64,000 nt of DNA from [Mycobacterium] nativiensis (lineage in GTDB: Bacteria > Actinomycetota > Actinomycetes > Mycobacteriales > Mycobacteriaceae). Position numbers and translations under genes: made by a program. The notes under the pieces were generated by a model. That model was not told where the DNA came from, did not search any database, and worked only from the letters and a program-made list of their open reading frames with translations. The stretch's first letter is position 1. Each line of letters begins with the position of its first letter. Location: NCBI RefSeq assembly GCF_020172685.1, contig NZ_CP083986.1, forward strand, positions 4,110,158 through 4,174,157, given 5' to 3'. This document shows positions 1 through 10,570 of the stretch, one piece after another.

Positions 1-19
1 AGATGTGTATAAGAGACAG
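1..19 (+). other. Tn5/Nextera mosaic-end adapter (artefact)
   Basis: The first 19 bases, AGATGTGTATAAGAGACAG, are identical to the Tn5 transposase mosaic end used in Nextera tagmentation libraries. It sits exactly at the sequence end and joins directly to PGRS coding sequence. It is therefore untrimmed library adapter, not mycobacterial DNA, and it marks a contig end. Confidence 0.95.
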
Positions 20-5429: not shown

Positions 5430-6302
5430 TCAGCCCACCACGCAGCGGAACCCGATATGGCTGGTGGCGGTGTCCTGCGACTGCGGCGAACGGGCCGTGG
5501 CCCGGTACCGGTGGCAGTACTCCGGTGCGCACAGATGCGATCCGCCCTTGAGTGTCTGGCTGACAGCCGGATCGGCCGGGCCGGCGGGCGCGCAACAGGA
5601 CTTCGGCGGTGCTGCACCTTCCTGGAGTCGGTGATGGCCGCCGAACTCGGTGGCGGTCCACTCCCACACGTTGCCGATCATGTCGAGCAGGCCCCATCGG
5701 TCCGGCGGGAACGTTCCGATCGGTGAGGTCCCGGCCCAGCCCAGTGCGCTGTCGTTGCGGTAGGGAAAGGCACCCTGCCAGGTGTTGGCCATCAGGGCGC
5801 CACCCGGCTTCTCCTCCTCCCCCCAGGGATAGGTACTGCTGGCCCCAGCGCGCGCCGCGTACTCCCACTCGGCTTCGGTCGGTAGGCGCCGCCCGGCCCA
5901 CCGGGCGTAAGCCGCGGCGTCGGGGTAGGCGACCTGCACCACCGGGTGATCACGGCGCCCCGTCAGATCGCTGTCCGGGCCGAGGGGATGCCGCCAGTTC
6001 GCGCCGGGAACCCATCGCCACCACTGCCGCCAGTCACGCAGGTCGACCGGCCCGGTTGTCGGGGTGAAGACCAGCGCGCCCGGTTCATGCGGCTCGACGT
6101 CGACCAGCTCAACTTCCTGTTCGGCGACCGTCACATAGCCGGTGGCAGTGACGAATTCAGCGAACTGATCATTGGTGACAGGGTGCCGTTCGATCGCGAA
6201 CGACGCCACCGTCACGCTGTGAATCGGGGCCTCTTCGGGATAGAAGCTCGTCGACCCCATCCGGTAGGTGCCGCCGGAGATCTCGACGAGTTCGGTCAGC
6301 AT
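5430..6302 (-). CDS. Formylglycine-generating enzyme (sulfatase-modifying factor)
   Basis: FGE oxidises the active-site cysteine of type I sulfatases to formylglycine using copper and oxygen. The 290-residue protein has the FGE-sulfatase fold: MVEIP-like start (LVEISGGTYRMGS), LPTEAEWEYAARAG, GNVWEWTATEF and GFRCV at the C-terminus. The two catalytic cysteines are C258 and C263 in SHLCAPEYCHRYR. It lies four bases after the sulfatase stop, so enzyme and activator are co-transcribed. The homologue at this position in M. tuberculosis is Rv0712. Confidence 0.96.
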   Translation of the reverse strand: MLTELVEISGGTYRMGSTSFYPEEAPIHSVTVASFAIERHPVTNDQFAEFVTATGYVTVAEQEVELVDVEPHEPGALVFTPTTGPVDLRDWRQWWRWVPGANWRHPLGPDSDLTGRRDHPVVQVAYPDAAAYARWAGRRLPTEAEWEYAARAGASSTYPWGEEEKPGGALMANTWQGAFPYRNDSALGWAGTSPIGTFPPDRWGLLDMIGNVWEWTATEFGGHHRLQEGAAPPKSCCAPAGPADPAVSQTLKGGSHLCAPEYCHRYRATARSPQSQDTATSHIGFRCVVG

Positions 6303-6306
6303 GGCT

Positions 6307-8673
6307 TCAGTCCCGCGAAAACGCCGCCGCCAGGCTCCTTTTCACATCCAGGTACGGCTCACCGCTGACATCCACGGCGACATCGGCGATGGTGCCCCCG
6401 GTGAAGCCGAACGGCGCCCGGTACGCCGACGAGACCGCCTGCCCGGTATTGCGCCCGACGCTGACCCCGCCGCCGGCCAAGGCGAACGCTCCCGGCTGGA
6501 TGATCATGTCCGCCAATGTGGCGACCACGGTGTCGTCGATGTACAGCGAACCCTCGCCAACCGGCGTGTGAGCACCCTCGACGGTGCCGCTGCGCGCGAA
6601 GCGGACCCCGAACGTGTGCTGCCCCAGCGGAATCGGATCGGGTGAGGACAGCCACTGTTCGCGTTCGCCGAGGAAGTTGTAGACGTAGTGCAGCCGACTG
6701 CCCTGAACGAACAGCACATGCCCGCCATGGCGCGCGCCCTGCTTGAACAGCACGCCCTCGGCGGTGGCGGAGGACACCGTGACGCGCGCCAGGACCGTGA
6801 AGGAGCGGCCGCGCAACTCGACACACGCCCCCAGCGGCACTTCGGAAGTATGCGGGTAGTAGGTGTAGCTGGTGCGGTCGCCGGACAGGTAGGGCCGCTG
6901 CCGGCTGGTCATCTCGAAAATGTTGAGGTCGGCCAGCGGCAGGCCGTTGTACTTCTGGGCCTCGGCGAACCACAGCTCCCGGAGTTCCTCGAGCTTCTCC
7001 GGATGCTCGCCGGCCAGATCCCGGCATTGACTGCGGTCGTCCTCGATGTGGTAGAGCTCCCAACGGTCGGCGTCGAAGTGGCCCCAGCCCGAGGGCGTCG
7101 CCGCGTGGACGGTGTTTGCGAACCAACCCCGGTGCCAGATCCCGCGGGTACCGAGCATGGAATAGAATTGGGTGTGCTTGCCGGTGTCGGCTACCGGATC
7201 CGCAAGCGCAGCTTTGAAACTGACTCCCTCCAGCGGCCGTTGCGGAATGCCGCGCACGGTCTCGGGCGGGTCGATGCCGAGCAGGTCGTAGACCGTCGGA
7301 GTCACGTCGCACACGTTGACGTAGGTGTCGCGCACCTCGCCGCGGGCAGCGATTCCCTCGGGCCAGCTGACGATCGCCGGGTCGGCGATGCCACCCTCGT
7401 GCGAGGCATAGCGCTTGTAGAGCTTGTAGGGCGTGTTGAACGCCATCGCCCAGCCGATCGGGTAGTGGTTGTAGGTCTCCGGGCTGCCCAGCTCGTCGAA
7501 GAGCTTCATCGCCTCCTCGACGGTGTCGATGTAGCCGTTGAAGAACTTGTTCTCGTTGGGAGAGCCGTTGGGGCCGCCCTCGCCGCTGGCGCCGTTGTCG
7601 GAGATCACCACGACGATGGTGTTGTCGAGTTGTCCGGACTCCTCCAGGTAGTCCAGGATCCGGCCGATCTGGGCGTCGGTGTAGCTCTGGAATCCGGCGA
7701 ACACTTCGGCCATCCGGGCGAACAATCGCTTCTCGGTGTCGTCGAGGCTGTCCCACGGCCGCACCGTGTCCAACATCGGCCAGGGCTGACCGTCGGCGCT
7801 GGTCGCATCGAGGTAGGGGTTGATCTCCGAGAGCTCGGTGTCCGGCGGCACCAGGCCCAGCTTCTTCTGGTTGGCCAGCACGATCTCCCGATACTGTTCG
7901 TAGCCCATGTCGAAGCGGCCGGCGTAGCGATCGGCCCACTCGGCGAAGACATGGTGCGGGGCGTGGCCGGCACCGGGGCAGACGTAGCCGAACCAAGGCT
8001 TGCCGGGCGCGATCGTCTGTGCGTCGCGAATGAATTCGATTGTCTTCTCGGCTATGTCCTTGGACAGGTGGTAACCGTCCTCCGGTGTGGCAGGCGGTGC
8101 CACCGGGTGGTTGTCGTAGACCAGGTCCGGATACCACTGGTTGGTCTCGCCGCCCATGAACCCGTAGAACCGTTCGAACCCGCGCTGCGTCGGCCAGTGC
8201 CGCCGAGTGGCGGCCATGTTGGACTCTTCCATCGGGGTCAGGTGCCACTTGCCGACGCAGAACGTGTTCCAGCCGCGCTCGGCGAGCACCTCGGACAGCA
8301 GAGCGGTTTCGAACGGGATGCGCCCACTGCAGTTGGGGAAACCGTCGGTGAACTCTTCGATGGTCGCCATACCGACACTGGTGGCGTTGCGACCGGTGAG
8401 CAGTGCCGCTCGGGTCGGGGAACACAGTGCGGTGGTGTGGAATTGGGACAGCCGAATCCCGCGCTCGGCGATCCGGCTCATGGCCGGCATCTCGACCAGC
8501 CCGCCGAAGCAGTCCCAGGTGGCGATACCGGTGTCATCCCACACCAGGTAGAGCACGTTGGGCGCGCCGTCGGGGGCGCTCGGTGCGGCGAACGGACCCC
8601 AGTCCGGTTCGGAATCCCTGATGTCGAGGTTGATCTTGCCCTGGAAGTTGTTGGAACCCGCGCCACTCACCAT
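6307..8673 (-). CDS. atsA: Type I arylsulfatase AtsA
   Basis: Hydrolyses sulfate esters. The 788-residue size matches M. tuberculosis AtsA (Rv0711), also found here after rpsQ. The formylglycine motif C84-S-P-T-R, followed by AALLTGRN, is intact, and metal ligands D46/D47 lie in LVWDDTG. The C-terminal ~200 residues form an added beta-rich domain (LYIDDTVVATL, SSAYRAPFGFTGG) seen in large mycobacterial sulfatases. No signal peptide is evident. FGE follows four bases downstream and would activate it. Its start is 304 bases from the divergent eccE-like gene. Confidence 0.96.
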   Translation of the reverse strand: MVSGAGSNNFQGKINLDIRDSEPDWGPFAAPSAPDGAPNVLYLVWDDTGIATWDCFGGLVEMPAMSRIAERGIRLSQFHTTALCSPTRAALLTGRNATSVGMATIEEFTDGFPNCSGRIPFETALLSEVLAERGWNTFCVGKWHLTPMEESNMAATRRHWPTQRGFERFYGFMGGETNQWYPDLVYDNHPVAPPATPEDGYHLSKDIAEKTIEFIRDAQTIAPGKPWFGYVCPGAGHAPHHVFAEWADRYAGRFDMGYEQYREIVLANQKKLGLVPPDTELSEINPYLDATSADGQPWPMLDTVRPWDSLDDTEKRLFARMAEVFAGFQSYTDAQIGRILDYLEESGQLDNTIVVVISDNGASGEGGPNGSPNENKFFNGYIDTVEEAMKLFDELGSPETYNHYPIGWAMAFNTPYKLYKRYASHEGGIADPAIVSWPEGIAARGEVRDTYVNVCDVTPTVYDLLGIDPPETVRGIPQRPLEGVSFKAALADPVADTGKHTQFYSMLGTRGIWHRGWFANTVHAATPSGWGHFDADRWELYHIEDDRSQCRDLAGEHPEKLEELRELWFAEAQKYNGLPLADLNIFEMTSRQRPYLSGDRTSYTYYPHTSEVPLGACVELRGRSFTVLARVTVSSATAEGVLFKQGARHGGHVLFVQGSRLHYVYNFLGEREQWLSSPDPIPLGQHTFGVRFARSGTVEGAHTPVGEGSLYIDDTVVATLADMIIQPGAFALAGGGVSVGRNTGQAVSSAYRAPFGFTGGTIADVAVDVSGEPYLDVKRSLAAAFSRD

Positions 8674-8977
8674 TACCCACTTCGCTTTCGGCCCCCGGAT
8701 CGGGTGCGAGACTACCGGCTCACGCGACGTCTACGGGGTCTTTCCGATACCGACGCCGCCGGTGGTGCAGCCGACGCCGCCGGTGGCTTCGGGGACGCCC
8801 TGAGCGGATTCGACCCGTTCGGATTCCCCGGCTTCTGAGGGATCCCTGCGGGGGCAGTGCGAATCAGGGGACGCCGAACATCCCAGGTGACCAATGCCAC
8901 GGGCCTGGGATGTTTGGCGTCCTCCTCGAATGGCAATTCCGGCGGCAGCGCGTACCAGGACGATCATCGGGGGGACC
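8674..8977. other. Gap between atsA and the eccE-like gene
   Basis: This 304-base gap has no supported gene. A 16-base unit, CCGACGCCGCCGGTGG, is repeated at 8750-8765 and 8771-8786 (21-base period). On the + strand that stretch reads as an open DAAGG-rich tail ending at 8838 with no start codon, possibly a gene remnant. A large inverted repeat (8867-8924) precedes the eccE-like gene. It must hold promoters for both flanking genes, but none is obvious. Confidence 0.6.
8867..8924. repeat. 21-bp inverted repeat upstream of the eccE-like gene
   Basis: Arms 8867-8887 and 8904-8924 pair over 21 positions, with G-T wobbles only, around a 16-base loop. The core is GACGCCRAACATCCCAGG. No T-run follows on either strand, so it is not a standard terminator. 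It ends 53 bases before the eccE-like start. It could be a transcript hairpin, an operator or a small mobile-repeat remnant. Confidence 0.8.
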
Positions 8978-10168
8978 ATGAGGGCGCAGCACACGTTTGG
9001 GTTGAATCTGTCCTGGCTGCGTGTCACGACGGTATTCCTCATCGACCTGGCGATCCTGGGGATCGCGAGCCATTGGCCCGACCAGCTCGGATCTGCCCAC
9101 CGCGCCTGGTGGCCCGCGGTCGGGATCGCGGCGCTGCTGACCTTGGCAGCCCTGATCACCCATCGCCGGGTGCCCCTGACCACCGTGGCGGCAGCGCGGG
9201 TATTCGACCGATTCGCCGACCCGGCCGCCTTGTTGACCGAGGGGCGCACGGCCGCTTTCGACCACCGGCGCCGCTACAGCCGCGAAGTGGTCGGGGTGCG
9301 CGAGTACAAGGGCCGGCTGGTGACCGTCATCGCCGTCTCAGCACCGCCCGCGGAAAACTCTGGGCGGCACCGTCGCGGCCCGCAGCCGGTGACGGCACTG
9401 CCGGCCGGCCTCATCGCCGCCAACCTGCGACAGTTCGACGTCCGATTGGACGGTATCGACGTGGTGTCTGTTCGGACCTACGACACCGCCGACGACGACG
9501 CGGGCGACGACGGGGAGGAGAGCCCGCGGGTGCCGGCCGCGCCGAGCCTGCACGAGAACTGGCTGATCTTGCGGATGGATCCGATGCGCAACGCCGACGC
9601 GGTCGCAGTCCGCGATTCGGTGGCCGCCACTCTCGCCGCCGCCACCGAACGGTTGGCCCACGACCTGCAGGAGTGCCACATCGTCACCCGCGTCCTGAGG
9701 GCCGAAGAGTTCGACCAGGTCGACGCGGCGGTGTTGGCCGGCCTACAGCCCACCCGGATCCGCCGTCGACGGCGTCGACTGAAGCAGAAACAGCCCAAGG
9801 GGCCCAAGCACTACGCGGCCACCTTCTGGATGTCGCCGCGCGACATCGACTCGGCGAACCTGGAGCAACTGTGGGAACCGACGGTCGAGGCCACCGCCGT
9901 CACAGTGCGGTTGGCACCACGAAACAGCCGAACAGAGGTATCGGTATTGGTGCGCTACCACAGCGCCAGCCGGCTACGCCGAAAGGCTTGGGCCGGACTC
10001 AATCGCCTCAACGGCCGGCAACTGACCGCCCTGCGCAACAGCCTGCCCACGCCGATGCGTCGGACACTCGCGGTGCCCGCCCGCGTGATGGACAGTCAAG
10101 AGACGTTGCAGGTGCCGCTCGGGCCAACCGAGCAGCAACCGCTGGCACGGGTCAGAGTGCCGGCGTAA
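8978..10168 (+). CDS. Orphan EccE5-like type VII secretion protein
   Basis: The 396-residue protein resembles EccE5 of ESX-5 (Rv1797, about 406 residues) along its whole length. From memory of that family the shared blocks are FGLxLSWxRVT, VGVREYKGRL, LRQFDVRLDGIDVVSV, LRMDPMRNADAVAVRDS, ATFWMSPRDID and AGLNRLNGRQLTALRNSLP. Two membrane segments lie near residues 10-28 and 39-57, then a cytoplasmic EccE domain. EccE forms the outer edge of the ESX inner-membrane complex. Normally it is encoded with eccB-eccC-mycP in an ESX locus. Here it stands alone, facing right between atsA and rpsQ, both leftward. The start at 8978 has a GGGGGA ribosome-binding site. It may be a spare subunit or a relocated copy. 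Confidence 0.85.
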   Translation: MRAQHTFGLNLSWLRVTTVFLIDLAILGIASHWPDQLGSAHRAWWPAVGIAALLTLAALITHRRVPLTTVAAARVFDRFADPAALLTEGRTAAFDHRRRYSREVVGVREYKGRLVTVIAVSAPPAENSGRHRRGPQPVTALPAGLIAANLRQFDVRLDGIDVVSVRTYDTADDDAGDDGEESPRVPAAPSLHENWLILRMDPMRNADAVAVRDSVAATLAAATERLAHDLQECHIVTRVLRAEEFDQVDAAVLAGLQPTRIRRRRRRLKQKQPKGPKHYAATFWMSPRDIDSANLEQLWEPTVEATAVTVRLAPRNSRTEVSVLVRYHSASRLRRKAWAGLNRLNGRQLTALRNSLPTPMRRTLAVPARVMDSQETLQVPLGPTEQQPLARVRVPA

Positions 10169-10205
10169 CCCGAGACCCGACTGATCCAGACACGGCCCCG
10201 CAGAC

Positions 10206-10245
10206 GACAAAGCCCCGCGACGCGCAGGTCGCGGGGCGTGTCGTT
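10206..10245. terminator. Terminator between the eccE-like gene and rpsQ
   Basis: A perfect 10-bp stem, GCCCCGCGAC (10212-10221) and GTCGCGGGGC (10228-10237), has a 6-base loop. It sits between the converging eccE-like and rpsQ stops, 9 bases after the latter. Short T-containing tails occur on both sides (GTGTCGTT rightward, CTTTGTCG leftward), so it probably stops both transcripts and ends the S10 operon at rpsQ. Confidence 0.8.
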
Positions 10246-10246
10246 A

Positions 10247-10570
10247 CTACTTGGCCTTCTCCAGGATTTCCACCAGGCGCCAGCGCTTCGTCGCCGACAA
10301 CGGGCGGGTCTCCATCAGCGACACGCGGTCGCCGATGCCGGCCGTGTTGTTCTCGTCGTGCGCCTTGACCTTCTTGGTGGTCCGGATGATCTTGCCGTAC
10401 AGCGGGTGCTTCATACGGTCTTCGAGCTCCACGACGATGGTCTTCTCCATCTTGTCGCTGACCACGTAGCCGATCTGCGTCTTACGGCGGCCCCGCGGCT
10501 TCTCCGTGCGCGGAGTGTGCTTGGGACCCTTCTCCGCTGCGGCGCCCTTGGTCTTTGCAGCCTCTGCCAT
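10247..10570 (-). CDS. rpsQ: 30S ribosomal protein S17
   Basis: S17 (107 residues) binds 16S rRNA early in assembly. The OB-fold core [20 protein letters not shown] and the C-terminal [25 protein letters not shown] are conserved. An Ala/Lys-rich N-terminal ~25 residues precede the core. It is the last gene of the S10 operon and its ATG overlaps the end of rpmC. Confidence 0.98.

What the first reader, a model, noticed from the sequence alone, without database searches (positions are those of the whole stretch)
8674..10245. Orphan EccE5-like gene inserted inside the ribosomal-protein superoperon
A near-full-length EccE5 homologue sits between rpsQ and atsA, opposite in direction, with its own terminator. 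From what I recall, M. tuberculosis has no gene here, and EccE is otherwise found inside ESX loci. EccE forms the periphery of the ESX membrane complex, so a detached copy could swap into ESX-5, alter substrate choice, or mark an ESX locus rearrangement. This is the strongest candidate for something undescribed.
Basis: partly seen in the sequence, partly recalled or inferred. Interest (0 to 1): 0.8.

Follow-up and report, generated by a model that had tools for sequence, protein, structure and literature searches.

The report
Second EccE5 outside the ESX-5 locus
Bacteria of the Mycobacterium terrae group carry, next to their ribosomal-protein genes, a well-preserved second copy of one membrane part (EccE5) of a protein-secretion machine whose normal copy is still in place, which suggests that the machine may be built in two versions.

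Summary
Window 8978-10168 (+) encodes a full-length EccE (396 aa; TIGR03923 E 9.6e-66) between rpsQ and atsA, which are on the other strand. It is not a misjoin: 17 of 396 genus genomes searched carry it at 64% identity or more, 16 of 17 directly beside rpsQ and one separated from it by an IS30-like gene. Named members are Mycolicibacter (M. terrae complex). All 17 also keep eccE5 inside ESX-5. The orphan clade is sister to the in-locus EccE5 of the same group (100/96): one old duplication and relocation, then loss in 4 of 21 terrae-type genomes examined, whose site is empty. Both copies are under purifying selection and each keeps 90 of 117 EccE5-conserved sites. EccD5, the docking partner, is single copy in 20 of 20 genomes. 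Best reading: an alternative EccE5 subunit, expressed apart from the ESX-5 operon and docking on the same EccD5; that step is inferred. Another detached EccE5 clade (G017, G075, G280) and a further copy beside a PPE-like gene in G315 exist. Eight paper searches found no description.

The parts
8978..10168 (+). eccE5 paralogue (396 aa, two predicted N-terminal helices 13-31 and 44-62, cytosolic domain)
   Evidence: TIGR03923 and PF11203; AlphaFold2 mean pLDDT 70.3, low (38-58) over residues 1-70; best Foldseek match EccE5 7b9f_E, TMt 0.88
6307..8673 (-). atsA-like sulfatase, divergent neighbour
   Evidence: PF00884 E 1.3e-63
10247..10570 (-). rpsQ, convergent neighbour
   Evidence: open frame; conserved neighbour in 16 of 17 genomes
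5430..6302 (-). formylglycine-generating-enzyme-like frame next to atsA (named by eye)
   Evidence: open frame; syntenic in relatives
8749..8838 (+). remnant: last 29 codons of a signal-peptide protein gene ('secr') that is whole in 10 relatives
   Evidence: local alignment with 5 relatives scores 115-146 against at most 53 in shuffles
8869..8921 (+). strong hairpin between the secr remnant and the paralogue
   Evidence: folded in 17 genomes; clear where secr is present, decayed in most that lost it (by eye); only itself found in the genome
10212..10237 (-). terminator-like hairpin, T-run on the rpsQ side

Best explanation
The gene is an old duplicate of eccE5 that moved out of the ESX-5 locus into the rpsQ-atsA gap in an ancestor of the M. 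terrae complex and has been kept as a working gene. Shown: family, place, shared ancestry with the in-locus EccE5, purifying selection, and that EccD5 is not duplicated. [quoted passage not shown] Because it stands apart from the mycP5-eccE5-eccA5 order and has its own start site, the ratio of the two EccE subunits can be set independently of ESX-5, giving two or mixed forms of the complex. About 0.93 on duplication and relocation; about 0.6 on the alternative-subunit role, which is the confidence given here.
For: Only EccE5 is matched among own EccE paralogues (373.7 bits; EccE1 and EccE3 not reported by phmmer). Sister to in-locus terrae-complex EccE5 at 100/96 and 100/97. Same site in 17 genomes. 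dN/dS 0.11-0.23 over 12 pairs, like the in-locus copy. 90 of 117 EccE5-conserved sites kept, the same number as the in-locus clade. Aligns over residues 1-383 with the solved EccE5 7b9f_E; fold match TMt 0.88. One EccD5 in 20 of 20 genomes with a detached EccE5, and EccE5 binds EccD5 in the solved complexes (passages).
Against: Nothing shows expression, membrane insertion or assembly. It is absent from 4 of 21 terrae-type genomes. Its crown evolves faster than that of the in-locus copy (0.41 against 0.26). The model is poor in the membrane part. No promoter-like site was found (the scan is not made for mycobacteria). Interface residues were not tested.
Confidence: 0.6

Rival explanations
1. 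The paralogue is the EccE of an ESX system that lacks one, chiefly ESX-4, or the partial ESX cluster at 340-347 kb.
For: In G000 the ESX-4 genes at 4039-4046 kb and the partial cluster have no EccE match near them.
Against: By sequence it is EccE5. The partial cluster was seen in G000 only and holds N runs. Whether ESX-4 of the four genomes without the paralogue has an EccE was not tested.
Confidence: 0.12
2. Plain dosage or backup: it does the same job as in-locus EccE5 and only adds supply.
For: Equal conservation of EccE5 sites and similar dN/dS; loss tolerated in 4 of 21.
Against: The two clades have stayed apart (about 51-55% identity in one genome) with 15 fixed differences and no sign of homogenisation in the trees.
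Confidence: 0.17
3. The block lysR-secr-eccE came in by horizontal transfer from an unsampled relative and is not a duplicate made in this lineage.
For: The four genomes without the paralogue lack lysR and secr too. The orphan is slightly nearer by identity to in-locus EccE5 of G343, G084 and G383 (55-56%) than to its own (51-53%).
Against: The tree groups it with the in-locus terrae-complex clade (100/96; 97/97). No genome outside the group had the block among the nine empty or outgroup sites looked at (5 outgroup). A donor that is an unsampled sister lineage is not excluded; it would leave the functional reading unchanged.
Confidence: 0.1

Closest known systems
[quoted passage not shown] organism recalled as M. 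xenopi)
   Same: Family, full length, order of elements, predicted fold, N-terminal MRAQ/MKAQ start
   Different: Encoded far from ESX-5, between rpsQ and atsA, on its own; a second EccE5 in a genome that keeps the first
Detached EccE5 copies in G017, G075, G280 and a third copy in G315
   Same: EccE5-type, no mycP5 or eccA5 match beside them
   Different: Other places and other branches of the EccE5 tree: G017/G075/G280 one clade at 100/100, G315 third copy unsettled
ESX-5a/b/c partial duplications (recalled, from no call)
   Same: Copies of ESX-5 locus genes elsewhere in the chromosome
   Different: Recalled to copy secreted substrates; here a membrane core subunit is copied alone

Membership tests
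EccE (type VII secretion protein E) | Match to the curated EccE models over their cut-offs | tested here: met
   TIGR03923 222 bits over 108, profile 2-343 of 344; PF11203 66.9 over 23.7
EccE5 | Falls among EccE5 sequences in a tree | tested here: met
   Inside EccE5 with two distant EccE rows as outgroup; sister to in-locus terrae-complex EccE5. EccE1 and EccE3 were compared by phmmer only
EccE5 | Two N-terminal membrane helices and the cytosolic EccE fold | tested here: met
   Helices 13-31 and 44-62, low pLDDT there; fold match to 7b9f_E TMt 0.88
EccE5 | Encoded in the ESX-5 locus (mycP5-eccE5-eccA5) | tested here: not met
   Between atsA and rpsQ; hence called an EccE5 paralogue, not the eccE5 gene
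ESX-5 membrane complex subunit | Physical assembly with EccB5, EccC5 and EccD5 | not testable with these tools
   No complex prediction or experiment available

The most novel reading that the evidence does not exclude
EccE5 is an exchangeable module of the ESX-5 machine: mycobacteria have more than once set a copy of eccE5 free of the operon (M. terrae complex; the G017/G075/G280 clade; G315 beside a PPE-like gene) to build a second form of ESX-5 with different substrate or regulatory behaviour.
Probability: 0.3. Interest if true: 0.8.

Novelty: new variant of a known kind. Interest (0 to 1): 0.5.

Why it matters
ESX-5 is described as built from protomers that each hold one EccE5 (passages). 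A conserved second EccE5 beside a single EccD5 would mean that this peripheral subunit can vary, and it makes the little-understood role of EccE directly testable: some species have both copies, close relatives have lost the second.

Tried and rejected
Misjoin: rejected, the neighbours recur in other genomes. Loss or rearrangement of in-locus eccE5: rejected. Pseudogene: rejected on intact frames and dN/dS. Special acceleration of the in-locus copy after duplication: the terrae-complex stem is long in EccD5 and EccA5 too. Number of losses: the four genomes without the paralogue fall as two pairs, but one clade is not rejected (p-AU 0.284), so one or two losses. The genome-contig scan with a single protein gave 3 loci only. 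'secr' has no Pfam match; of 155 homologues, 120 were listed, mostly without a name or called hypothetical, one called a PE-PGRS family protein. A first EccD5 extraction failed and was redone. The second structure job was not used. Copy number across the 20 genomes was tested for EccD5 only, not for EccB5, EccC5 or MycP5.

Full report
What is there. The window lies at 4,110,158-4,174,157 of a 5.28-Mb one-contig assembly, G000. Window 8978-10168 (+) is a complete EccE gene: TIGR03923 E 9.6e-66, PF11203 66.9 bits. Its neighbours atsA (6307-8673) and rpsQ (10247-10570) are on the minus strand. The hairpin at 10212-10237 has its T-run on the minus strand and so fits rpsQ, not this gene.

Is the normal copy present? 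Yes. The genome has four EccE matches: at 7.7 kb, 290.6 kb, 2392 kb and here. The 2392-kb copy stands in eccD5-mycP5-eccE5-eccA5 order (L006). The ESX-4 genes at 4039-4046 kb have no EccE match near them. The paralogue is 51-53% identical to own EccE5; against own EccE5, EccE1 and EccE3, phmmer reports EccE5 only, while a six-frame search gave the 7.7-kb EccE a weak match of 31.9 bits.

Who else has it? Of 396 genus genomes (drawn evenly from a larger group) 150 have a match at E 1e-70 or better; 17 hold a copy at 64% identity or more, and the next best is 56%. All 17 also have in-locus eccE5. 16 of 17 lie beside rpsQ; in G093 an IS30-like transposase gene stands between. Three named records match the group, also by coordinates: Mycolicibacter sp. 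MYC098 (G371), M. sinensis (G386), M. kumamotonensis (G344). Source names of close proteins (70-74% identity) include M. terrae, M. senuensis, M. longobardus and M. nonchromogenicus, labelled EccE or EccE5 by the sources, so the gene is annotated in databases.

Older layout. In 10 of 16 genomes with enough flank, a signal-peptide protein gene ('secr', no Pfam match) precedes the paralogue on the same strand. In the 5 of these where the fetched stretch reaches further, a lysR-type gene lies between secr and atsA. 6 of 16 lack secr: G000, G371, G315, G374, G197, G016. In G110 the contig ends too soon to tell. The window keeps the last 29 codons of secr at 8749-8838 and the hairpin after it. So this lineage lost lysR and most of secr but kept the paralogue.

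Origin. The tree of 62 EccE5 sequences joins the 17 orphans (100/100) with 21 in-locus terrae-complex sequences (100/100) at 100/96; with two distant EccE as outgroup the value is 100/97, and 97/97 with the other detached copies added. Four genomes with terrae-type in-locus EccE5 (71-73% to own; G395, G097, G249, G102) have atsA next to rpsQ and no match to the paralogue, secr or lysR. They nest inside the in-locus clade, so the gene was lost there, once or twice (p-AU 0.284 against two trees). I compared 20 further in-locus EccE5 with own EccE5: 0 of 20 were terrae-type (at most 50.3%). Not all of the 150 were checked, so 17 of 21 is a count of those examined.

Function. dN/dS is 0.11-0.23 over 12 orphan pairs and 0.05-0.36 over the 11 of 12 in-locus pairs that could be computed; the pairs are not independent. 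Of 117 sites conserved in 24 other EccE5, the orphan clade keeps 90 and the in-locus clade 90, not the same ones throughout. The only solved-structure sequence match is EccE5 7b9f, which is also the best fold match (TMt 0.88; model mean pLDDT 70.3, weak in the first 70 residues). EccD5 gives one match in 19 of 20 genomes with a detached EccE5 and two pieces on one contig in G154. In the ESX-5 structures EccE5 sits at the periphery, bound to EccD5, six per complex (passages of PMC8131196 and PMC8232910). eccE5 is classed as essential in M. kansasii and as growth-defect in M. tuberculosis (passage of PMC10470612). From this I infer an alternative peripheral subunit. Against: dispensable in four genomes, faster crown evolution than the in-locus copy (0.41 against 0.26), no expression data, no interface test.

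Wider pattern. EccE5-type copies with no mycP5 or eccA5 match beside them also occur in G017, G075 and G280 (one clade, 100/100) and as a third copy in G315. G280 is listed with 5% contamination, so its second copy needs care. In G315 a PPE-like gene lies upstream on the same strand (recognised by eye). The place of the G315 copy in the tree is unsettled (85/32).

Literature. Eight searches gave no paper that I recognised as describing a detached EccE5; the library holds open-licence papers only. I saw passages of PMC8131196, PMC8232910, PMC10470612, PMC5349653 and PMC4418733 and listings with abstract starts of the rest.

Noticed in passing
L167 (G280), L169/L055 (G017), L170 (G075), L112 (G315 third copy): Further EccE5-type genes with no mycP5 or eccA5 match beside them; the first three form one clade at 100/100, and the G315 copy follows a PPE-like gene on the same strand.
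   Followed up: partly
window 1-19; L075 (G000 335-354.9 kb): The window begins with a transposase-adapter sequence (recalled as Nextera), and L075 holds the adapter and ten N runs, so the one-contig assembly is scaffolded with adapter remains.
   Followed up: partly
L075, G000 about 340-347 kb: A further, partial ESX cluster with eccA-like, eccB (interrupted by an N run) and eccC frames and no eccD, mycP or eccE match.
   Followed up: partly
directly upstream of the paralogue in 13 of 17 genomes, e.g. L050 before 8985: A 6-codon open frame with a G-rich ribosome-binding-like stretch whose stop overlaps the EccE start (ATGA/GTGA); absent in G000, G371, G315 and G374 (read by eye).
   Followed up: partly
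window 8869-8921 and relatives: Strong hairpin CATCCCAGG...CCTGGGATG between secr and the paralogue, kept where secr is kept and decayed in most genomes that lost it; perhaps the terminator of secr.
   Followed up: partly
L079 8818-9843 and 7450-8493: An unnamed signal-peptide protein gene and a divergent lysR-type gene next to the paralogue in relatives of the window.
   Followed up: partly
G022 C1:2875514, G097 C1:1954190, G197 C29:3393, G093 C1:2776160, G395 C1:77045, G102 C98:28810: A further EccE family match of another kind (open frames 369-471 aa) in several relatives, without a counterpart among the four matches of G000.
   Followed up: no
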